Assembly (NCBI GenBank): GCA_005223075.1
Contig: NJBO01000013.1
Span: 1-63,422 of the forward strand
Length of the DNA: 63,422 nucleotides
Source: a candidate division TA06 bacterium B3_TA06
GTDB lineage: Bacteria; Hydrothermota; Tepidihabitantia; B3-TA06
Direction of reading: 5' to 3'
Numbering within the stretch: the stretch's first letter is position 1; each line of letters begins with the position of its first letter. The notes below the pieces were generated by a model that did not search any database, was not told where the DNA came from, and worked only from the letters and a program-made list of their open reading frames with translations. Shown here in pieces: positions 5,435 to 63,054 of the stretch. A program made the translations under genes and the position numbers.

Positions 5435-6023
5435 AGATAAACCGCCTCGCAGCCGTGAATGCGGTGCCTAAAAGAAGACCTCGTATCACCCAATTCATAT
5501 AATACGGGATAGCTATCAAGGCCACCCCTATGATGAAGACCCGGGTCGGTCTGTCAAAGAACCCAACCTTGCAGTGGATACCTACCCCTTCGGCACGGGC
5601 GCGTACGTAGCTTATAGAGTAGGAGGCGAAAAGAAGGGCGAACAGCAACGCGGAGTCGAGTTTACCGAAATCGAAGAAAAGAAAGATCCCAAGGAAGATA
5701 ATGAACTCTGAGACCCGATCGAGTACCGAATCGAGGAAAGCTCCCTTGGCCGACGCCTTGCCAAGCGCACGCGCCACCTCGCCGTCCACGATATCCCAGG
5801 CCGCGGCAAAAAGGATAACCCCGCCTGCGGCACGCATCCAGCCGGAGACACCGCTGGCGAAACCACGGTACATGAGGATAAAGGCCACGCCGGTGAATAA
5901 AATCCCTGCCATAGAGATAACGGCGGGAGGCATCCCTAACCGGACAAAGCTCTTCACCAGCGGCGAGACAAGCCACCGGAAGCCCGCATAAACCTTACCG
6001 CGTGTTTCCCGAGACCAGGACAA
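5406..6023 (-). CDS. CDP-alcohol phosphatidyltransferase family membrane protein
   Basis: A 205-residue integral membrane enzyme with the CDP-alcohol phosphotransferase signature DG-xx-AR-x8-G-xxx-D-xxx-D, seen from DGEVARALGK to DSVLDR, with all four metal-binding aspartates present. Such enzymes transfer a phosphatidyl group from CDP-diacylglycerol to glycerol-3-phosphate, inositol phosphate or another alcohol. The acceptor cannot be told from sequence; PgsA-like or phosphatidylinositol-phosphate-synthase-like activity are the main options. Several hydrophobic segments are visible. It overlaps rsmI and hflX by 29 bp each, consistent with one operon. Confidence 0.88.
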   Translation of the reverse strand: MSWSRETRGKVYAGFRWLVSPLVKSFVRLGMPPAVISMAGILFTGVAFILMYRGFASGVSGWMRAAGGVILFAAAWDIVDGEVARALGKASAKGAFLDSVLDRVSEFIIFLGIFLFFDFGKLDSALLFALLFASYSISYVRARAEGVGIHCKVGFFDRPTRVFIIGVALIAIPYYMNWVIRGLLLGTAFTAARRFIYVLTRKAES

Positions 6024-6681
6024 CGAGCTCCCCTTTCAATACGATCTCACGCAAGGTTTCTGTAAGATGTTCGAGATCGGTACGTGCCACCTGTTCAAAG
6101 CGCTTGGTCAACTCACGCGCAAGCACAACCTGGCGATCAGGACCGAGAACTTCAAGGAGATCACGAGCTATTTTGGGCAAACGAAGTGCGGTTTCATAAA
6201 GGATTATGGTACCTCGTTCTTCGGCAAAGGAACGGATCTGGATCTTGCGTCTTCCCGACTTCTTTGAAAGGAATCCAACGAACAGGAACCGGTCGGTTGG
6301 GAGGCCGGAGACGACCAAAGCGGCAAGGATGGCCGAAGGACCGGGGATGGGAACAAGATTGATCCCCTGCTTTACGGCCTCGCGCACAAGGTAGAATCCA
6401 GGGTCTGATATAGCCGGGGTGCCGGAGTCGGATACCAGTGCAAGGATTTCTCCGTTCGAGAGTTTTGCCAGAAGAGAGGGAGTGCGTGAAGTTTTGTTGG
6501 CGTCGTTGTATGAAATGAGAGGCTTGTGAATGTCGTAGTGGGTAAGCAGCGATCTTGTCCGACGGGTATCCTCGCAGACCACAAGATCCACCGCTCTCAG
6601 GACATCAAGCGCCCGCAGGGTAATATCTGCCATATTCCCTATCGGGGTGCTCACGATGTAAAGGGTGCCGCGTTCGATCAA
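5995..6681 (-). CDS. rsmI: 16S rRNA (cytidine-1402-2'-O)-methyltransferase RsmI
   Basis: A 228-residue tetrapyrrole-methylase-fold SAM enzyme that 2'-O-methylates C1402 in the decoding centre of 16S rRNA. The N-terminal YIVSTPIGNMADITLRA, the CEDTRRT motif, VSDSGTPAISDPG and PIPGPSA are diagnostic of RsmI. It lacks the longer C-terminal extension of some homologs (E. coli RsmI is about 286 residues), so this is a compact form. The start codon overlaps the stop of the upstream gene by 4 nt (ATGA). Confidence 0.95.
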   Translation of the reverse strand: MIERGTLYIVSTPIGNMADITLRALDVLRAVDLVVCEDTRRTRSLLTHYDIHKPLISYNDANKTSRTPSLLAKLSNGEILALVSDSGTPAISDPGFYLVREAVKQGINLVPIPGPSAILAALVVSGLPTDRFLFVGFLSKKSGRRKIQIRSFAEERGTIILYETALRLPKIARDLLEVLGPDRQVVLARELTKRFEQVARTDLEHLTETLREIVLKGELVVLVSGNTR

Positions 6682-7631
6682 AAGATCTGTTCTTTGATGT
6701 GGTCAAAAAACTTTAGGTTATTGAGCGCAAACCGGTAGTCCTGAAGCGCCTTGCGGAAGACGGTGATGTGTCTGCCACCGGAGATGGTGGAAAGCGAGTC
6801 TGCCAGCAGGTTGAAGAAGGCGGCGAATCCACGCACCAGGCTATCTGTATCCACCTTGGGTGCGCCCGTGAACCTGGCGTCATCTGTGATCTTGAAACTC
6901 TCGAAGAAGGTATGCTCCTTGGCAACACCTTTAAGCGAGATCTCTGCTATCTTCTTCACGATGTTGCGTCCAAGGATCGCCGTGAACTCTTCAAGCAGAC
7001 GGTTTGCAGAGGTTATCAAAAGTTCAACCTGAGCAGATGTAGCGTATGCCGCCTCCTCAGGCACCTCCCGAATGATCTTGATGGAGAGCTCCGAACCCCA
7101 TTCCTTGAGGTACTTGAAGAGATCATCTGGGGTTCGCCCGCCTGGAGCCAGATATACGGTGGAAACCTCACCTTCCTTCACCAAAACGTAGGACTTCTCG
7201 TTGCGACGAGTTATCACCAGTATGCCTGAAAAGTTCTGCACCGACAGGTCACGCAGGAGATTTAGGGGAGGCACACTGCGAGCATCCACCTCCCGAACCA
7301 CGTTTTCATCCCGCAAGCCGACGATTATCATCACCAAAAGCTGATCGTCGGCGAACGCAACGTTCACAAGTGAGGAGTCGGTGTGCTTGATCTTCTCATC
7401 TACATCCATGAGGGCAACCTCTTTGGTAGGAACATTGTTGGCGACCCGCATAATAGTTGCAAGCTCCCCCTGGCGCACGAGCAGGATATCGAAGGAATCC
7501 GGGTAGTCTATGGTGATGTAATAGGAGCGCTTAAAAGCCCGGTGCTTCTTGGCAAAGTGCAGCAGCTCATTGAGATCGACGAACTCAGCACGCAGCGAAA
7601 AAAGCACGAGCTTTTCCCTTGGAAACCTCAT
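6678..7631 (-). CDS. Conserved-looking protein of unknown function in the clpC operon
   Basis: A 317-residue soluble protein without signal peptide or membrane segment. The middle part ([33 protein letters not shown]) resembles the DUF4388/PATAN type of module, in which a small beta-rich unit reports 'input' features in signalling proteins; this is a weak visual match. The C-terminal half is helical. It is translationally coupled on both sides by ATGA overlaps (clpC upstream, rsmI downstream), so it belongs to the clpC-rsmI-hflX operon. I cannot assign a function. Confidence 0.75.
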
Positions 7632-10018
7632 GCCTCCTCACTGTCAAATACCAGCTTGCCGCACGCAAGCCTGACGCGATAGGAGCGCCGCCCCTGACCG
7701 TTGATAAGTATCCTGGCTAAAGGATTGGCAACGAGCCGCTCTATAGTTCTCTTAAGGGGCCTTGCCCCGAATCGTTGATCAAATCCCTCGCGCATCAAAA
7801 GCTCCTTTACCTCATCTGAGAAACGAACCTTGATTCCTTTATCCTCCAGCCTCTCTTTAAGTCGCCCAAGCTCCAGTTCCACAATAAAACCCATATGTTC
7901 CAGCGTAAGCGGCTTGAACACCACTATCTCGTCAATGCGGTTGAGGAACTCCGGGCGGAAGTTCGCTGCCAGATGCCTATCCAGCTCATCCTTGCCGAGC
8001 TCGCCGCCGCTATCCAGTATCTCCTGCGAAGCGATGTTTGATGTCATAATAACCACTGTATTGGCAAAGTCAACCGTCCGACCCTGGCCGTCCGTAAGGC
8101 GACCGTCGTCCAGAAGCTGAAGGAGTATGTTGAACACGGCAGGATGAGCCTTTTCAACCTCGTCGAGAAGGATAACCTGGTAGGGTCTGCGGCGCACCGC
8201 CTCGGTAAGCTGACCTCCTTCCTCGTAGCCCACATAACCCGGAGGCGCACCCACGAACCGGGCGACCGAGTGTTTCTCCGAGTACTCGCTCATATCCATT
8301 CGCAGGAGCGCCGCCTCGTCGTCGAACAAAAACCACGCAAGGCTTCGCGCAAGCTCGGTCTTGCCGACACCTGTGGGACCTAGGAAGAGGAAGGAACCGA
8401 TGGGACGGGCAGGATCGGAAAGCCCTGAGCGCCCCCTGCGAATCGCGTCTGCCACCGCACGAACCGCCTCGTCCTGATCGATGAGCCGCTCGTGGATACG
8501 CTCTTCCATCCTTAAAAGCTTTTCGGCCTCCCCTTTGAGCATATTGGCCACCGGTATCCCTGTCCAGCGCGAGATAGTCTCGGCAATCTGCTTTGCATCA
8601 AGTATCTGGCCTATCCCCTTGTCTTTCAGGTATGCACTGCGCTCGGCCACGTAATCGGCCTGAATCTTGTCCGCCTCTTTCTTGAGCCGTGCCGCACGGG
8701 TGTAGTCCTGAATCTTGACCGCCTCCTGACCCTCACGGGTAAGCTCGGCCAGCCGCTGCCCCTTCTGGCGGATCTCAGGCGGCAGGGAGTACATATCCAG
8801 CTTGAGATAGGCTGCCGCCTCGTCGAGCACGTCGATAGCCTTGTCAGGGAGATGGCGACCGGCAATGTAGCGTGATGAGAGCCTGGCAGCGGCCTCTAGG
8901 GCGTCATCTGCGATCTTCACCCCGTGATGGGCCTCGTAGCGGTCGCGGAGTCTTGCAAGTATCAGGATCGTTTCCTCGATCGTAGGTTCATCCACGTATA
9001 CAGGCTGGAACCGGCGCTCCAAAGCCCCATCCTTCTCGATGTGCTCGCGGTACTCCTTGAGTGTGGTTGCGCCCACGCACTGAATCTCGCCGCGCGACAG
9101 GGCGGGCTTGAGCAGGTTGGCCGCATCAATCGCTCCCTCGGCAGCGCCCGCACCAACTATGGTGTGCATCTCGTCGATAAAAAGGATAACGCTACCGCGA
9201 TTCTCTTTGAGCTCATTAAGAACCGCCTTCAGCCGCTCCTCGAACTCACCGCGGAACTTGGTGCCGGCAACCAGCTGACCCATGTCAAGCGCCAGAACCC
9301 GTGAGTTGCGAATGATCTCAGGCACCTCGCCCGCGACTATCTGCTGCGCAAGCCCTTCAACTATAGCGGTCTTTCCGACCCCTGCCTCGCCTATCAGCGC
9401 AGGGTTGTTTTTGGTGCGTCGGGAAAGTATCTCAATCACCCGGCGTATCTCGTCGTCGCGGCCGATCACAGGGTCAAGCTTGTCCTCCTTTGCAAGTTGA
9501 GTTAGATCGCGAGTGTACTTTTTCAAGGATTGGTAGTGGCTTTCAGCATCAGGAGAGGTAATACGCTGCGTGCCTCGTATCTTCTGCAAGGCATGGTAGA
9601 CCTTATCGGTAGTGACCCCGAAGTCCGAAAGCACCCGTGCCGCCACCCCCTCGCGCTCCTCGGTCAGGGCAAGAAAGAGATGTTCTGTGCCTATATACTC
9701 ATCCTTGAGCCGCCCTGCCTCCTCTGAGGCACGATCCAGTACGCGCTTTAATCGAGGGGTAAGGTAGGCCTGCTCGGTCCCGCCCCCAGCCCCCACAACT
9801 TTCGGCAATCTATCGAGTTCACGTTCAAGACGCTCAACAAAGTATTCCGAGGCGATGCCCATCTCCGATAGAACCTGCGGCACAAGCCCCTGCTGTTGCG
9901 TAAGCAGCCCGAAAAGCAGGTGATGCGCGTCAAACTCGGTGTGCTGAAAGCGAGTTAAAGACTCCTGTGCCAGGGCCAGCGCTTGCTGCGCCCTCTGGGT
10001 AAAACGGTCTAATCTCAT
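7628..10018 (-). CDS. clpC: ClpC/ClpB-type AAA+ unfoldase
   Basis: A 796-residue Hsp100 ATPase: Clp N-domain (residues 1-145, two repeats), first AAA+ domain with Walker A GEAGVGKT (210-217), a short middle region with a UVR-like helix ([20 protein letters not shown]), and second AAA+ domain with [11 protein letters not shown]. Length and middle region match ClpC rather than ClpB. However, the stretch after IMTSN ([20 protein letters not shown]) lacks the [IVL]GF loop that ClpA/ClpC/ClpX use to dock ClpP, and reads like ClpB. It could therefore be a ClpP-independent disaggregase with a ClpC-type body. It leads a five-gene operon. Confidence 0.92.
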
Positions 10019-10028
10019 GACAACTAAT

Positions 10029-10056
10029 AGTTTAGCAGGATAGGTGGCTTTGTCAA
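10029..10056 (-). promoter_or_regulatory. Promoter of the clpC operon
   Basis: Minus strand: TTGACA at 10051-10056, 16-nt spacer, TAAACT at 10029-10034. The clpC ATG begins 10 nt after the -10 box, so the leader can be only a few nucleotides. No CIRCE or CtsR-like site is evident. Confidence 0.7.
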
Positions 10057-10701
10057 TACAAAAGAACCCTTCCTCCCAGGGATTGATGAGGCTTTTCCGG
10101 GGGGAAAAAAGGTGTACAAAAACTACCCGAAAGCTGGTCAGATGCTGGTCAAAAGTTGGTCAAAAGGTGGACATTTTGCGGGTCCGATGCCGAATAAGTG
10201 GGACAAAAGATGGACAAAGGCGCGACTGCGTCGCCATTGCAAATATCAAATTGCAAATTTTAAAATGCGATTGCTCCGCAAGCGTCGCCCTCCGGTGCAA
10301 AAGTCAAAGTGCAAAGTGTAAAATGGAAGGGTCAAGGGGTGACGCTCACAGCTGACAGCTCACAGCTGACGGCAGGGGACGCGACTTCGTCGCGAATGCA
10401 AATATCAAATTTACTCCGCAAGCGTCGTCCTTCGGACAAAATGCAAATTTCAAAATGATGGGGCGGGAAGCAGACGTCTGGGGTAAAAAAGTGGGACAAA
10501 TAACAGCTCACAGCGGACAGCTGACGGCAGAGGGCGCGACTGCGTCGCCATTGCAAATATCAAATTGCAAAATGCAAATTTTAAAATGCGAATAGCTCCG
10601 CAAGCGTCGCCCCTAAACTAAAATGTCATTGCGAGCGAACCCGGTGAGCGAAGCAATCTCGCCCCCTCACCGCCGCTTCGCGCCGTTGTGGGGACCCCAG
10701 G
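10057..10701. repeat. Repeat-rich spacer without genes
   Basis: About 640 bp with no credible gene. It holds two related copies of a GCGACTGCGTCGCCATTG-like block followed by runs of TTGCAAATATCAAATTGCAAA (near 10218-10280 and 10535-10610) and a weaker third at 10379-10450, the palindromic motif AGCAGACGTCTGGGGTA (10469-10485), several 'CAGCTGACAGCTCACAG' pieces, and a copy of the TCATTGCGAGCG...GAGCGAAGCAATC repeat (10624-10660). These look like dispersed intergenic repeats rather than decayed genes. Confidence 0.6.
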
Positions 10702-12240
10702 CTATCTCACAAGAACGACCTTGAGCGCAGGTGCTTGAGAGTCTTGCGGCACTATGAAGTAAACACCAGGGCTGTGATTTTCTCCCCAGGTCAAAGTTCC
10801 GTTTTGAGCCGGGGATTCTATCTCGTCAACCTTGCGGCCCGAGGCGTCGAAGATTGAAGCTCGAAAGCCATCGGGGCTATCTTGATATCGCAGCACTATT
10901 TGAGAACCGATGGAGGTTATCACTTCCCAGTTGGGCGGCTTTTCAACAATCGGTGGCTCCGCTACCCCTATCCCCATGTCCCAGTCGGTGATCATTGCAA
11001 AGGCCTCGAAGATGGTGTCCGGGTTGGGGCGGGTATACACCCACACGATACGATCGTTGCAGCAGGCAACCGCAGGAGGCTGAGTGTGGCCCCAACAGTT
11101 CACGGTATCCGCTCCCCAGGGCGGGGTGTACTCAAACAGGGTGGTGCGGCGTATCGGTTCGTTGTCCTGGATATATCCCAGTATCCCTCCACCATGATCC
11201 CAGGTACGCAGTTCTCCATCAGGATAGTCATAGCGGGTTCTTATGTGAGTGTAGGCAAAGCTGTCGTTAGGGGCAACGGCCGTGGAATACCAGCCTCTTG
11301 AACCGCCATGTGCACCCCACAAGGTATCTTGCCATATCAGCCCGCGTATGGGATGGCGCGTCAGGCCACGATCACTGAACACCCGACCTACAATAAGCGG
11401 ATAACAACTCGGATCTTTCCAGAACATCACGAAGCGGTCGTTATCCAGCCAGTAGGACTCAACCCGGTGGCCCCTAGAGCTATCCTCGTTCACCAGATGC
11501 CCCATCGGCTCCCAGGGTAGGATAGATTCATCCTCGGCGTCAAACACCTGAAACCTGGGATAAGATATTGCATTCGGAGGAAGGCGAAGCTCATGCCAGG
11601 TTACCACCAGGTCGCCTGCATCATTCAGCGCCACACCAGGATAGTTTAAATTGGCATCATCAGGGAGATCGCCGTGAACCCTGAATGGATCACCCTGCGG
11701 ACCGCCCTGGAAAGAATAACGTCTTGCGTAAATCGTATCACCATCCCAGACTATAGCAAACTCGGCCTGGTCGTTGAGACTCACCGCAACCGCTCTGTTG
11801 GAGCTGGGAACATATCCCTGATAGCCTGTCTGAGGAGAACCCAGGGGATTGCCGCTCGTGTCAAAAAGCTGTAAGCGTAAAAACGCCTCATCAGGATTCG
11901 GATAAGGATGCTCTGTCCAGAGCAGGACGGTATTTCCTGCTGAATCCATGTCAAGATGGGAACCGCCTATCCGGTGGGTGTCCGCAACCTTGGTTATCTT
12001 GTAGGCGTCGGTTAAAGGGCTGCCGTCCGGGTCAAAGAAACGCACGAAAAGCTCTAGCTCATCGAAGGGGGGGTAATCAACCAGCAGGTGGTCTACCCAT
12101 GCTACGGCAAACCGCCCGTCAGATGCCATTGCTGTGCGCAGGCACCTCTGATCATGGCCTGGCTCAGCCTCGGCGATGCGAAAGGGCCCTACGAGTATAT
12201 CACCCCACAGGGTTAAAGCTAAGAGGCTTATATTAAGCAT
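10702..12240 (-). CDS. Secreted protein with Por-type C-terminal sorting tail
   Basis: A 512-residue exported protein. The ATG at 12240 is chosen because a strong Shine-Dalgarno (AAAGGAGG) lies 6 nt upstream and a consensus promoter precedes it; the longer open frame upstream would cross that promoter. A short hydrophobic N-terminus (MLNISLLALTLWG) is followed by beta-rich, Trp/Asp-rich repeats of the kind seen in beta-propellers. The last ~70 residues (FRASIFDASGRKVDEI...SPGVYFIV...KVVLVR) have the shape of a type IX secretion C-terminal domain. No T9SS machinery genes are in this window. Function unknown. Confidence 0.8.
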   Translation of the reverse strand: MLNISLLALTLWGDILVGPFRIAEAEPGHDQRCLRTAMASDGRFAVAWVDHLLVDYPPFDELELFVRFFDPDGSPLTDAYKITKVADTHRIGGSHLDMDSAGNTVLLWTEHPYPNPDEAFLRLQLFDTSGNPLGSPQTGYQGYVPSSNRAVAVSLNDQAEFAIVWDGDTIYARRYSFQGGPQGDPFRVHGDLPDDANLNYPGVALNDAGDLVVTWHELRLPPNAISYPRFQVFDAEDESILPWEPMGHLVNEDSSRGHRVESYWLDNDRFVMFWKDPSCYPLIVGRVFSDRGLTRHPIRGLIWQDTLWGAHGGSRGWYSTAVAPNDSFAYTHIRTRYDYPDGELRTWDHGGGILGYIQDNEPIRRTTLFEYTPPWGADTVNCWGHTQPPAVACCNDRIVWVYTRPNPDTIFEAFAMITDWDMGIGVAEPPIVEKPPNWEVITSIGSQIVLRYQDSPDGFRASIFDASGRKVDEIESPAQNGTLTWGENHSPGVYFIVPQDSQAPALKVVLVR

Positions 12241-12259
12241 TACTGCCTCCTTTCGTCTC

Positions 12260-12288
12260 AGTATAAGCCAATTCTCCGGCAATGTCAA
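12260..12288 (-). promoter_or_regulatory. Promoter of the secreted-protein gene
   Basis: Minus strand: TTGACA at 12283-12288, 17-nt spacer, TATACT at 12260-12265, then a short leader carrying AAAGGAGG before the ATG at 12240. This is a leadered unit, in contrast to clpC. Confidence 0.75.
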
Positions 12289-12379
12289 ACTGTTTAGGGT
12301 TGGTCAGATCAAATAGTATCAGAATTTTAACGATAGGCGCCGCCGTTTTATGGGTATATGTACTGGCGGTTAAGGATTC

Positions 12380-13636
12380 TTACCGCGCCTTGCGTTTGGC
12401 GGCGGGCTTGCGAAAGCGCGGGACCTTACCCTTGGTTATTACCTCTTCGCCTATGGTGCACTCCACGTATCCTTTCTTCTTGCGATCGGGCAGCTCGAAC
12501 ATGATGTCGAGCATGGTCTGCTCCATGATCGAGCGCAGACCCCTGGCACCTGAGCCGCGTTCGTTTGCCCGCTGCGCAACCGCCTCGAGCGCCGCGTCTG
12601 AAAAGCGCAGCTTTATGCCCTCCATGTCGAAGTAGTGCTGGTATTGATTCAGTATAGCGTTGCGCGGTTCGGTCAGGATGCGCACCAGGGCGGCTTCGTC
12701 AAGGGATGTCAAGGATACGACAACCGGGATGCGCCCCACAAGCTCAGGGATAAGTCCATAGTGAACCAGATCCTCAGGCTCAACACGGGCAAGTATCTCA
12801 TCGTCTGAGAGGTCCTCCACCCTGTCGCGTTGGATACCGAATCCTATCGCGGTCTTGCGAAGCCTGGAGCGGATGATTGGCACCAGGCCGTCGAACATCC
12901 CTCCGAAGACGAAAAGGATACCGCGGGTGTCCACCGGTATGAACTGCTGCTCCGGATGCTTGCGCCCACCGCGCGGCGGCACGTTGGCCACGGTTCCTTC
13001 GATGATTTTGAGAAGCGCCTGCTGCACCCCTTCGCCCGAGACGTCGCGGGTGATCGAGGGCGAGTCAGAGCGCCGTCCCAGCTTGTCTATCTCATCAAGA
13101 TATATGATACCAGTCTGCGCTCGTTCCAGATCGTAGTTGGCGGCCTGCAGAAGTCTGAGTATGATATTCTCAACGTCTTCCCCAACGTAACCCGCCTCGG
13201 TAAGTGGGGTTGCATCGGAGATCGAGAACGGGACGTTCAGGTATCGCGCCATGGTCTGAGCAAGCAGGGTCTTGCCAACCCCGGTAGGACCGATGAGTAG
13301 TATGTTTGCCTTCTCGATCTCAACACCCTTGCGTCGGGTTATCAACCGCTTGTAGTGATTGTATACGGCGACCGAGAGCACCTTCTTTGCTCGCCCCTGG
13401 GCTATTACGTACTTGTCGAGATGCGCCTTGAACTCGGCGGGCGTGGGTAGGCTGGTAAGGGAAAACGTCTGCTCTGCCCGCTCCTCGTTATCTATGACAC
13501 CTGCAAACAGCTTAACGCATGAATCGCAGATGTAGCCCCGGCGTCCTGAGATCATACGCTTCACGACCTGCTTTGGCCGGCCGCAGAACGAGCAGACTAC
13601 CTCGTGACTAGCTCTTTTTTGATCCTTCTCGCTCAC
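12380..13636 (-). CDS. clpX: ATP-dependent Clp protease ATP-binding subunit ClpX
   Basis: A 418-residue AAA+ unfoldase that feeds substrates to ClpP. It has the N-terminal zinc-binding domain (CSFC...CDSC), Walker A GPTGVGKT, Walker [10 protein letters not shown] and sensor/arginine-finger segments typical of ClpX ([15 protein letters not shown]). The ClpP-docking tripeptide appears as IGF in TAIGFGIQ. Its start overlaps the clpP 3' end by 29 bp, completing the order tig-clpP-clpX common in bacteria. A basic C-terminal tail (KPAAKRKAR) is extra. Confidence 0.97.
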
Positions 13637-14216
13637 GGGTAGGTTCCAGTATCTCGTCTATCAAGCCATAGGCCTTTGCCTCATCCGGGCTCATGAAGTA
13701 ATCGCGATCGGAGTCTTGCTTGATCCTCTCCATATCCTGACCGGTAGTTTCGGCAAGTATCTCGTTAAGCTTCTTGCGCCACTTCAGGAGCTCCTTTGCG
13801 TGTATCTCCACGTCTGCGGCCACCCCTGAAAGCCCTGAGATGGAGGGCTGGTGCAGCATTATGCGCGAGTTGGGCAAGGCGTAGCGCTTGCCTTTCTTGC
13901 CTGCGGCGAGAAGCACCGCCGAGATGGAAGCGGCCATCCCAACACAGGTGGTCACGATGTTTGATTTGATGTAGAGCATGGTGTCGTAGACGGCAAATCC
14001 TGAGGTAACGATACCGCCCGGCGAGTTGATGTAGAGGTTGATGTCCTTCTGGGAGTTCTCGGCATCCAGGAATAAAAGCTGGGCGATAACCAGGTTGGCG
14101 ACGTTATCGTCCACCGGCGAGCCCAGGAAGATGATGCGGTCCTTAAGCAGCCGCGAGTAGATGTCGTAGGCCCGCTCACCGCGGCCCGTTTGTTCAATGA
14201 CTATCGGGATATACAA
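13608..14216 (-). CDS. clpP: ATP-dependent Clp protease proteolytic subunit ClpP
   Basis: A 202-residue serine protease of the ClpP family, forming the tetradecameric chamber that ClpX serves. The N-terminal [20 protein letters not shown] is canonical. The catalytic triad can be placed: Ser in GMAASISA, His in MLHQPS, Asp in DRDYFMS. The usual GQAAS is GMAAS here, a conservative change. The start overlaps the tig 3' end by 23 bp, and its own 3' end overlaps clpX. Confidence 0.97.
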
Positions 14217-15426
14217 TTAAACCTCCTTCTGCTGCTTGCTGTAGGAGAAAATCTATAATCTTGCGTCTGCGCGCTTCGTTCATTGCTACCTCACGCCTCC
14301 AGATGGCCTGCGCCTGGGGCAAGGGAATCCCCATCCGCTCGGCGCGTTCGGCAAACCAGGCTTCAAGCTCCTCATCGGATACGCTGATCTTCTCCTTTTC
14401 AGCGATCGTCTCAATGATGATATCGAGTTTGACGTGTTCTGCCGCCTTAGGCTCGACCTCTTGACGTGCCTCGGGTGTGTCCGGGATGCGAAGGCGTACC
14501 AGTAAGTAACGAATGCGCTCTTCGACCAGCGATGGTGGAGGATCAAACGGATGCAACTCCAGAAGCTGGGCAAATATCTGATCCTCGCGCCGCTCCTGCA
14601 TTATCCGTTCGGCTTCCTCGGTTGCGTCGGAGGCCAGTTTGGAACGCATCGCTTGAAGCGTCTCGAAACCCGTCTCCTTTGCGAACTCGTCCGAGAGTTC
14701 AGGCAGGCGGCGTTCCTTGATCTCGTGGATAAAGAACTTGAAGGTGGCCTCGCGTCCGGCAAGCTCACCCGCGTCGTCAGGATACCTTACCACGGCCTCC
14801 GCGATCTCATGCACCTTCTTGCCCACCAAGGCGGCGTTTATCTGGGGGAGGTTCTCCCGGTCGCCTATCTTCACAAGCACCCCGGTCTGTTTGTCCTGTT
14901 TCTTTCCGTCGCGGTAGACCGAGTAGTCGCAGCGAACGTAGTCGCCTTCCCTTGTTTCGCGATCCACCGGCTCGAACCGGGCCGAACGCTCACGCATGGT
15001 CTCCAGATGCCTTTCTACCAGCTCATCCCCGGAGGGTTTTGTGACAGGTTCCAGCTTAAGTTTGCGGTATCCACGCACCTCGATTTCAGGCATCACCTCG
15101 GCCTCGACCTCAAAGCGGAGCTCGTCTTGCTCTATGAAGTTCCAATGCGTCAGACGTCCCTGGGAAAGCGGACGGATGCGTTTATCCTCCAGCGCCTCGC
15201 GATACGCCCTTGATGCGAACTCCTCAACAAGCTCGGCCTTGACGTCTTCGGCATAGCGGGCCGCCACCATGGACACGGGCGCCTTTCCAGGCCGGAACCC
15301 AGGGAGCTTTACCCCGCGAGTGAACCGGCGCAAGAGCTTCTCGCGCTCTTTGCGAACCTCATCAGGCTCAACCTTGCCCTCGATAGCAAGAAGCCAATCC
15401 GTCTTGTGAACCACGTTGGTTTCCAC
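14194..15426 (-). CDS. tig: Trigger factor (ribosome-associated chaperone and prolyl isomerase)
   Basis: A 410-residue trigger factor. The N-terminal ribosome-binding domain carries the signature loop GFRPGKAP (the G-F-R-x-G-x-x-P motif), followed by an FKBP-like domain (about 150-235) and the helical C-terminal chaperone domain. It starts with GTG at 15426, preceded by AAAGGAAAG. A tRNA-Leu gene ends only 34 nt upstream on the same strand, so tig, clpP and clpX may share the tRNA promoter. Confidence 0.95.
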
Positions 15427-61696: not shown

Positions 61697-61725
61697 ATTA
61701 TAGGAGCAAGAAGGGTGGTTGTCAA
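61697..61725 (-). promoter_or_regulatory. Promoter of the hdr operon (near-leaderless)
   Basis: Minus strand: TTGACA at 61720-61725, 17-nt spacer, TATAAT at 61697-61702, then 9 nt to the hdrC ATG. Both boxes match the consensus exactly. Confidence 0.8.
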
Positions 61726-61730
61726 CCAGA

Positions 61731-62009
61731 ATGGGAGAGAGAGGCTGGGATTTCGAAACCAAAGGTAACTGGAACGATCTGCTTGATGCGGGCTGGGTGG
61801 TGTTTGACGACCTGGGGACTGAAGATCCAACAAATCTCCGGTTCAAGACAAAGTTCAACCATCTCTTCGAAACGCGGCATCGAGAGCAGCGTACATTGAT
61901 CATCCTTACAAACGTGAGGATCGAGGAGTACGGTGAGCGGATAGTCTCACGGATACGCGATTGGGGAGTTGAAGGATCAGTCTGGGAGATTCCTCACATC
62001 AAGATTTGA
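61731..62009 (+). pseudogene. DnaC/IstB-like ATPase fragment
   Basis: About 92 codons match the C-terminal half of DnaC/IstB-type AAA+ proteins (Walker B WVVFDDLGTED, then FNHLFETRHREQRTLIILTN and sensor region RIRDWG). The Walker A half is missing, and the frame begins inside the divergent hdr promoter region, so it is a truncated remnant of a helicase loader or IS accessory gene. Confidence 0.65.
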
Positions 62010-62112
62010 AAGAGTGTAAGATTTAAGCAGGAGGATATAGAAGTATGGCTCAAATCCCGTCGTGTTATGCAGACAATTTCCAATCAAGACAGCGCTAAAC
62101 TTCTCTCTGATG

Positions 62113-62140
62113 TTGACAAACCACATTGTCCGATTAGAAT
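62113..62140 (+). promoter_or_regulatory. Promoter of tRNA-Met
   Basis: TTGACA at 62113-62118, 16-nt spacer, TAGAAT at 62135-62140, about 60 nt before the tRNA. Confidence 0.7.
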
Positions 62141-62153
62141 TTGGACTTCCCTT

Positions 62154-62199
62154 CACGGGGTCCCCGCGAAGCTGCGGAGCAGATTCGTGGGGTGAATAT
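62154..62199. repeat. Left copy of a ~46-bp repeat flanking the tRNA-Met cluster
   Basis: Starts ACGGGGTCCCCGC and ends GTGGGGTGAATA. The right copy at 62527-62573 has the same start and end and a similar middle. Confidence 0.65.
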
Positions 62200-62273
62200 G
62201 GCGGTGTAGCTCAGTTGGTTAGAGCAGCGGAATCATAATCCGCGTGTCGGGGGTTCAAATCCCTCCACCGCCA
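62200..62273 (+). tRNA. tRNA-Met, elongator type (anticodon CAT)
   Basis: A 74-nt tRNA: acceptor GGCGGTG with CACCGCC, T8-A9, D arm GCTCAGTTGGTTAGAGC, anticodon arm GCGGAATCATAATCCGC, T arm GGGGGTTCAAATCCCTC, discriminator A, no encoded CCA. The body closely follows bacterial elongator tRNA-Met rather than initiator (paired first base, no GGG/CCC anticodon stem) or tRNA-Ile2. Confidence 0.94.
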
Positions 62274-62475
62274 CTTGATTATGTCTTGCACATGTTTAGA
62301 GCAGCGGACGCGAAGCGGCGATGACTATCGCCATCATAATCCGCGTGTCGGGGGTTCAAATCCCTCCACCGCCACTTGATTATGTTTTGCACATGTTTAG
62401 AGCAGCGGACGCGAAGCGGCGATGACTATCGCCATCATAATCCGCGTGTCGGGGGTTCGAATCCCTCCACCGCCA
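62274..62475 (+). repeat. Two 101-bp tandem units derived from the tRNA-Met 3' part
   Basis: Units 62274-62374 and 62375-62475 each contain a spacer, TTTAGAGCAGCGGA, a 24-nt insertion, then the remaining anticodon arm, variable loop, T arm and acceptor 3' strand of tRNA-Met. The 5' acceptor and D-arm 5' half are absent, so they cannot form a normal tRNA. The insertion includes a hairpin GGCGAT-GACT-ATCGCC. The two units differ by only a few bases. Confidence 0.85.
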
Positions 62476-62526
62476 GTTGGTATACTCAAGGTTAAGAAAA
62501 GTGCGATTACAAAAGGAACCGTCGCT

Positions 62527-62573
62527 TACGGGGTCCCCGCAAGAGCGCGCAGCGATCTTGTGGGGTGAATACC
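62527..62573. repeat. Right copy of the repeat flanking the tRNA-Met cluster
   Basis: ACGGGGTCCCCGC...GTGGGGTGAATA, matching 62154-62199 in direct orientation. Confidence 0.65.
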
Positions 62574-62604
62574 GCCAGTTGATCTACCTAAGGAGAATTA
62601 AGGA

Positions 62605-63054
62605 ATGACCATATCTATCGGTGCGGATCATCATGGTTTTGTTCTCAAGAATTCCCTGAAAAGATGGCTCCAGCTTAAAGGCCACAAGCTAATTGATGCC
62701 GGAACCGACGATCCCACATCCACAGATTACCCCGACTATGCGCTCGCAGTAGGCAGTCTGGTAGGCTCGGGCGAAGCCGAACTGGGGATACTGATCTGCG
62801 GGACAGGTATAGGGATGTGCATCGCCGCCAATAAGGTGAATGGTGTGCGTGCCGCCAGGGTATGCAGCGAGAAGGACGCCCAGATGGCCCGCCGTCACAA
62901 CAACGCAAACGTCCTGTGTTTTGGAGCCGAGATCGTGAACGAAGCGCTTGCCCGCAGGATGGTTACTGCATGGATGGAGAATGAGTTCGAGGGCGGGCGC
63001 CACGAACGCAGGGTGGAAAAGATCACCGCTTTTGAAAATAAAAACGAAGGCTAG
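62605..63054 (+). CDS. rpiB: Ribose-5-phosphate isomerase B
   Basis: A 149-residue RpiB/LacAB-family isomerase converting ribose-5-phosphate and ribulose-5-phosphate in the pentose phosphate pathway. IGADHHGF at the N-terminus, catalytic Cys in LICGTGIGMCIAANK, and RRHNNANVLCFGAEIV are diagnostic; the GTGIGM is the usual phosphate loop. AAGGAGAATTAAGG precedes the ATG. A short ORF and a MoxR gene follow closely. Confidence 0.95.
   Translation: MTISIGADHHGFVLKNSLKRWLQLKGHKLIDAGTDDPTSTDYPDYALAVGSLVGSGEAELGILICGTGIGMCIAANKVNGVRAARVCSEKDAQMARRHNNANVLCFGAEIVNEALARRMVTAWMENEFEGGRHERRVEKITAFENKNEG

What the first reader, a model, noticed from the sequence alone, without database searches (positions are those of the whole stretch)
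62154..62573. tRNA-Met followed by two 101-bp copies of its 3' part carrying a 24-nt hairpin insertion
Each unit lacks the 5' acceptor strand and most of the D arm but keeps the anticodon arm 3' side, T arm and acceptor 3' strand, with a 24-nt insertion in the anticodon stem that forms its own hairpin. The whole cluster is bracketed by ~46-bp direct repeats. Tandem exact-length copies with a shared insertion show duplication of an already modified copy. They could be a repeat element that lives on tRNA 3' ends or a source of tRNA-like RNAs.
Basis: seen in the sequence. Interest (0 to 1): 0.68.

Follow-up and report, generated by a model that had tools for sequence, protein, structure and literature searches.

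The report
Integration scars stacked behind a tRNA-Met
Two extra back halves of a methionine tRNA gene, each joined to a small hairpin, sit behind the intact gene; they are most likely footprints left by mobile DNA that repeatedly inserted at the gene's anticodon loop, a site that related bacteria show being attacked from both sides.

Summary
In detail: an intact tRNA-Met(CAT) (62200-62273) is followed by two 101-bp units (99% identical), each holding the tRNA 3' half from the first anticodon-loop base, a 59-bp spacer, and a hairpin ending flush with the next copy. The "46-bp bracketing repeats" are two members of a dispersed REP-like hairpin family, unrelated to the cluster.

Related WOR-3 genomes explain the copies. 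In this order one tyrosine-integrase family sits at tRNA genes in three geometries. One restores the tRNA 5' half (int upstream of the tRNA). One restores the 3' half, leaving an orphan 3' half that starts at the anticodon stem/loop. One is tail-to-tail. This tRNA-Met carries such junctions in G002, G003, G004 and G007; outgroups have bare tRNA-rpiB. The window also holds decayed dnaC-xis genes of a 5'-type element upstream of the tRNA. So the array is best read as attachment-site scars at a two-sided integration hotspot, later amplified. It is not a tRNA source.

Unresolved: the hairpin abuts the crossover core in three species with different stems, and G003 has an ectopic 135-bp unit between 10-bp core repeats. 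A tiny mobilised unit is therefore not excluded.

The parts
62200..62273 (+). intact tRNA-Met(CAT); CCA not encoded
62232..62238 (+). anticodon loop ATCATAA: inferred crossover (core) region; the ectopic copy in G003 narrows the shared core to ATCATAATCC (62232-62241)
62274..62332 (+). 59-bp spacer 1: 19-bp unique sequence, D-arm/anticodon-stem remnant (62293-62308), 24-nt insert (62309-62332)
62317..62332 (+). hairpin GGCGAT-GACT-ATCGCC ending flush with the core
62333..62374 (+). orphan tRNA-Met 3' half, copy 1 (starts at first anticodon-loop base)
62375..62433 (+). 59-bp spacer 2 (one mismatch to spacer 1)
62418..62433 (+). hairpin, second copy
62434..62475 (+). orphan tRNA-Met 3' half, copy 2: followed by the sequence that follows the tRNA in G001 (TTGGTATACTCAAGG), so the displaced older 3' half
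62571..62577 (+). ACCGCCA + GTTGATCTACCTAAGG before rpiB: probable last remnant of a still older tRNA 3' end (23-bp repeat, 83%)
   Evidence: D6; outgroup tRNA-rpiB spacing
61719..62009 (+). fragment of a DnaC-like helicase-loader gene of a 5'-type integrative element (94% aa identity over 82 aa to dnaC beside such an integrase in G001:C61)
62010..62123 (+). fragment of an excisionase-like gene (43% over 37 aa to the gene upstream of the integrase remnant at tRNA-Thr, G000:C3)
62113..62140 (+). promoter-like TTGACA-16-TAGAAT, probable tRNA promoter
   Evidence: 1 found, 0.6 expected
62157..62193 (.). dispersed REP-like hairpin (upstream flank)
62530..62566 (.). dispersed REP-like hairpin (downstream flank)
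62605..63054 (+). rpiB: conserved downstream neighbour of this tRNA in the order

Best explanation
The 3'-half copies are attachment-site (att) scars of integrative elements whose tyrosine integrase recombines at the anticodon loop of this tRNA-Met. An element carrying its own tRNA 3' half inserts between anticodon stem and loop. The tRNA is rebuilt with the element's 3' half and the old 3' half is pushed downstream. The element body was later lost, leaving only its fused ends (59 bp: short left end, D-arm-like remnant, hairpin, core), and the resulting 101-bp unit was duplicated, probably by unequal crossing-over between the 42-46-bp tRNA repeats. A second class of element, which rebuilds the 5' half, has decayed on the other side of the same tRNA. 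Shown: the boundaries, sibling elements at other tRNAs, empty outgroup sites, and dnaC/xis debris. Inferred: the deletion and amplification steps, and which integrase made this particular scar.
For: (1) Boundary: orphan 3' halves next to integrases start at tRNA position 31 (Thr-TGT G002:C65, Arg-CCT G002:C37, Met G004:C43) or 27 (Thr-CGT G000:C3); the units here start at 33, the first loop base. (2) The same genome holds an apparently intact element of this kind, tRNA-Thr(CGT) + ~9.2 kb + integrase + 46-bp 3'-half repeat, G000:C3. (3) Same tRNA-Met in relatives: G004 integrase fused to its 3' half; G002 integrase 30 bp upstream plus two extra 3' halves at 127-bp period; G003 tandem 57-bp tRNA 5'-half units beside an integrase remnant; G007 a 3' half with a hairpin at the same point before rpiB. 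(4) Empty sites: G005 and G008 have tRNA-Met with rpiB ~20-35 bp downstream. (5) dnaC-like and xis-like fragments upstream in the window match genes beside 5'-type integrases. (6) The last copy, not the first, carries the native downstream sequence, as displacement predicts.
Against: No intact element with the hairpin-type end was found, so the parent of this unit is unknown; 3'-type elements found here end in CTCCGGTAA..., without a hairpin. Short collapsed units in three lineages are a little too regular for random deletion. The unit has D-arm sequence on the wrong side of the crossover, which a plain 3'-half att site need not have.
Confidence: 0.78

Rival explanations
1. The units are tiny non-autonomous mobile units (100-135 bp: core, tRNA 3' half, hairpin) moved in trans by a resident tyrosine integrase, a cassette-like array seeded at a tRNA.
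For: A homologous unit (76% over 110 bp) sits at an unrelated place in G003:C95, between 10-bp core repeats (ATCATAATCC...135 bp...ATCATAATCC) and next to a subtilisin-like protease gene, with no tRNA identity to the right of the second core. The hairpin is flush with the core in the window (x2), G007 and G003, with different stem sequences.
Against: Only one ectopic copy found; CGCCATCATAATCC occurs in that setting only in G000, G003 and G007 among 147 genomes of the phylum. No empty site for the ectopic copy was found. A 101-bp circle is physically unlikely to form.
Confidence: 0.1
2. Plain tandem duplication by replication slippage or homologous recombination at a tRNA, with the hairpin brought in by chance; no integrase involved.
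For: Exact 101-bp period and near-identity; 46-bp repeats would recombine readily.
Against: Does not explain why orphan halves of several tRNA types start within a few bases of the same anticodon position beside integrases, or the homologous unit in another genus at the same locus.
Confidence: 0.08
3. The array is a functional locus: a source of tRNA-like small RNAs or decoy att sites kept by selection.
For: No terminator is predicted between tRNA and array, so read-through transcripts are possible; unit sequence is largely preserved.
Against: No acceptor 5' strand, Rfam score below cut-off, folding no better than shuffled, absent in G005 and G008.
Confidence: 0.03
4. Assembly artefact of a metagenome-assembled genome.
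For: Several relatives break contigs exactly in this tRNA (G001:C5/C62, G003:C39, G007:C8).
Against: Copies carry different bases; related arrays are assembled independently in G002 and G003.
Confidence: 0.03

Closest known systems
tRNA-targeted integrative elements and genomic islands (Islander, PMC4383910; tRNA gene fragments from element integration, PMC9897764)
   Same: Intact tRNA at one end, displaced tRNA fragment at the other; crossover in the anticodon loop; fragments scoring as poor tRNAs.
   Different: Here the element body is gone and only 59 bp remain between fragments, in two tandem copies with a hairpin flush with the core.
Recurring tRNA 3'-end repeats of additive flexible genomic islands (tRNA-Lys in Methylophilaceae, PMC10872708)
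   Same: Repeated tRNA 3' ends marking successive insertions at one tRNA.
   Different: There the repeats are the last 20 bp and precede islands of 330 bp to 42 kb; here they are the whole 3' half at a fixed 101-bp period with no cargo.
5'-half-restoring integrases (pTN3-like in archaea; described as seldom encountered in bacteria, PMC8371274)
   Same: In relatives, int lies just upstream of the tRNA and supplies its 5' half and probably its promoter.
   Different: Bacterial, several tRNA species, and the same integrase family also has 3'-half-restoring members acting on the same tRNAs.
Tycheposons (tRNA-associated elements with tyrosine recombinase, as cited in PMC10872708)
   Same: tRNA-Met and tyrosine recombinase at island border.
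   Different: The original description could not be read here; no membership test was made.
Integron cassette arrays (attC hairpins; own knowledge)
   Same: Tandem short units, hairpin next to a crossover, tyrosine recombinase nearby.
   Different: No attC-type sequence was looked for, no cassette gene, no integron integrase, and the repeated part is a tRNA half.

Membership tests
att-site scars of tRNA-targeted tyrosine-integrase elements | Direct repeat of a tRNA part with one end at a known integrase crossover point | tested here: met
   Copies start at the first anticodon-loop base; sibling orphan halves next to integrases start at positions 27-33
att-site scars of tRNA-targeted tyrosine-integrase elements | Integrase-bearing element at the same tRNA in relatives | tested here: met
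   G002:C100 and G004:C43
att-site scars of tRNA-targeted tyrosine-integrase elements | Empty site in outgroups | tested here: met
   G005 L039, G008 L069: tRNA-Met followed by rpiB with no array
Complete integrative element (as opposed to a scar) | Integrase or element body present between the repeats in the window | tested here: not met
   Only 59 bp between repeats; element genes survive only as dnaC/xis fragments upstream, so it can be a scar but not an element
att-site scars of tRNA-targeted tyrosine-integrase elements | Recombination at the anticodon loop by this integrase | not testable with these tools
   Needs an in vitro or in vivo recombination assay
tRNA gene (functional extra copies) | Complete cloverleaf above the Rfam cut-off | tested here: not met
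   18.8 bits against 29
Dispersed REP-like repeat (flanking 46-bp repeats) | Many similar palindromic copies across the genome | tested here: met
Non-autonomous mobile mini-unit | Copies at several unrelated sites with target-core duplication | tested here: inconclusive
   One ectopic copy with 10-bp core repeats in G003:C95; no empty site found
Integron cassette array | attC sites and an integron integrase | not tested
   Resemblance only; nearby integrases match phage-type Pfam/PHROG models, but no attC search was made

The most novel reading that the evidence does not exclude
A minimal, gene-free mobile unit of about 100-135 bp, made of a tRNA 3' half and a hairpin abutting the crossover core, is moved in trans by tyrosine integrases and accumulates in tandem at a tRNA, with occasional insertion at other places sharing only the 10-bp core.
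Probability: 0.1. Interest if true: 0.75.

Novelty: new variant of a known kind. Interest (0 to 1): 0.4.

Why it matters
It turns an odd repeat into a readable record of repeated integration at one tRNA in an uncultured lineage (WOR-3). It also exposes a bacterial integrase family that uses the anticodon loop from both sides: some members rebuild the tRNA 5' half, others the 3' half, even on the same tRNA. The review read here'-half replacement seldom encountered in bacteria. The hairpin flush with the crossover core in three species is a specific, testable oddity.

Tried and rejected
Bracketing repeats as target-site duplications: rejected, dispersed REP-like family. Hairpin as a dispersed repeat: the best extra genomic match to GCGGCGATNACTATCGCC looks like it lies inside a ferredoxin-like coding region. 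Viral contigs with GCCATCATAATCCGCG: 9 hits, none followed by a tRNA 3' half. Genome contigs with CGCCATCATAATCCGCGTG: besides the WOR-3 record matching G007, hits in Ruegeria, Solirubrobacterales, Thermoleophilia and Hyphomicrobiales look like orphan tRNA-Met 3' halves; the pattern selects for CGCC, so this says nothing about a shared hairpin. Phylum-wide pattern hits outside the family look like coding sequence. tRNA-like RNA source: rejected on Rfam score and folding. Fusion of two element ends (5'-type left end plus 3'-type right end) as the origin of the spacer was considered: G003:C39 shares TTAGAGCAGCGGACGCGAAG exactly, but this could not be settled.

Full report
CHECK. The window is contig C13 of a 2.41-Mb, 42-contig genome. 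Its order appears to be candidate division WOR-3, because a named WOR-3 record (L074) matches contig C8 of the same-family genome G007. The tRNA-Met(CAT) at 62200-62273 is intact. Behind it come two 101-bp units, 99% identical. The block from the anticodon loop to the tRNA end is present three times at exact 101-bp spacing. The 24-nt insert (62309-62332, 62410-62433) carries the hairpin GGCGAT-GACT-ATCGCC. It sits at the 5' edge of the anticodon loop, not within the stem. The flanking 46-bp repeats are members of a dispersed palindromic family (GGGGTCCCC...GCGAAGC...GGGGTGA-like) found throughout this genome and its relatives.

THE SAME tRNA IN RELATIVES. Order-level searches show that the tRNA-Met next to rpiB is bare in G005 and G008 but disturbed in five genomes. 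G002 has an integrase ending just upstream of the tRNA and two extra 3' halves at a 127-bp period, each preceded by a REP-like hairpin. G004 has an integrase whose end is joined to the tRNA 3' half. G003 has tandem 57-bp units of the tRNA 5' half, next to an integrase remnant, and an ectopic unit elsewhere. G007, of another genus, has a 3' half preceded by a different hairpin at the same point. G001 breaks between two contigs inside the tRNA and has a partial tRNA-Lys 5' half upstream.

THE INTEGRASE FAMILY. A protein search found relatives of the G002 integrase in 8 of 9 genomes of the order; the two integrases tested match Phage_integrase and PHROG integrase models. Most lie beside a tRNA. 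In one geometry the integrase reads into an intact tRNA about 10-60 bp downstream (Met, Thr-TGT, Thr-CGT, Arg-TCT, Arg-CCT, Lys, Ala). In G004:C173 the other end of the element is a 42-nt tRNA-Thr 5' half 9.5 kb away, so this type rebuilds the 5' half. In a second geometry the integrase reads into an orphan 3' half starting at the anticodon stem/loop (Met, Thr-CGT, Thr-TGT, Arg-CCT), so this type rebuilds the 3' half. In G000:C3 such an element spans ~9.2 kb between tRNA-Thr(CGT) and its 46-bp repeat, with a restriction-modification-like and an ATPase cargo. A third geometry is tail-to-tail with the tRNA (Gly, and one Arg-TCT). In G004:C173 the tRNA-Thr has a 5'-type element upstream and, downstream, the same left-end sequence that starts the 3'-type element of G000:C3.

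THE WINDOW READ IN THAT LIGHT. Upstream of the tRNA are fragments of a DnaC-like gene (94% identical over 82 aa to one beside an integrase of this family in G001) and an Xis-like gene (43% over 37 aa to one upstream of an integrase remnant at tRNA-Thr in G000). The integrase itself is gone. Downstream, the last 3' half, not the first, is followed by the sequence found after the tRNA in G001, as expected if newer 3' halves were inserted at the loop and the old one was displaced. A 23-bp partial repeat of the tRNA end just before rpiB may mark a still older event.

HOW IT WORKS (inferred). An integrase crosses over at the anticodon loop, the element brings a replacement 3' half, and the tRNA stays functional. 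Loss of the element body leaves [3' half - short spacer - core], and the repeats then allow unequal crossing-over. The deletion and amplification are inference; the boundaries and relatives are shown.

WHAT REMAINS ODD. The hairpin ends flush with the core in the window (twice), G007 and G003, with different stems. None of the 3'-type element ends found here has such a hairpin. G003:C95 has a homologous 135-bp unit away from the tRNA between 10-bp core repeats. These leave room for a small mobilised unit, at about 10%.

NOVELTY. tRNA fragments from element integration, anticodon-loop crossovers and repeated tRNA 3' ends at islands are known (PMC9897764, PMC8371274, PMC10872708). The original sublocation paper and the tycheposon paper were not held and could not be read. 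The tandem, cargo-free units with a core-abutting hairpin, and one integrase family approaching the same anticodon loops from both sides, are a variant on that theme.

Noticed in passing
window 62157-62193 and 62530-62566; dozens of places in G000: Dispersed REP-like hairpin: constant ends (GGGGTCCCC / GGGGTGA), variable but complementary inner stem, GCGAAGC-like loop. The upstream copy lies between the predicted promoter and the tRNA.
   Followed up: partly
L119 (G000:C3) 5926-15251: Apparently intact 9.2-kb element between tRNA-Thr(CGT) and its 3'-half repeat, carrying a type IIG/DrmMI-like restriction-modification protein and an LmuB-like ATPase.
   Followed up: partly
L117 (G004:C173) 124-165, 8600-9742: About 9.5-kb element flanked by tRNA-Thr(TGT) 5' halves, integrase 28 bp before the intact tRNA; the 3' side of the same tRNA shows the left end of a different element class.
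   Followed up: partly
L161 (G003:C95) 13187-13229: Orphan tRNA-Arg(TCT)-like 3' half (93%, position 33 on) on the same contig as the ectopic Met unit.
   Followed up: no
L162 (G001:C62) 11634-11685: Partial tRNA-Lys 5' half about 100 bp upstream of the tRNA-Met, diverging at the anticodon loop.
   Followed up: no
L072, L075, L077, L079, L080: Orphan tRNA-Met 3' halves starting at ATCATAATCC in Ruegeria, Solirubrobacterales, Thermoleophilia and Hyphomicrobiales, probable attachment-site fragments in other phyla.
   Followed up: no
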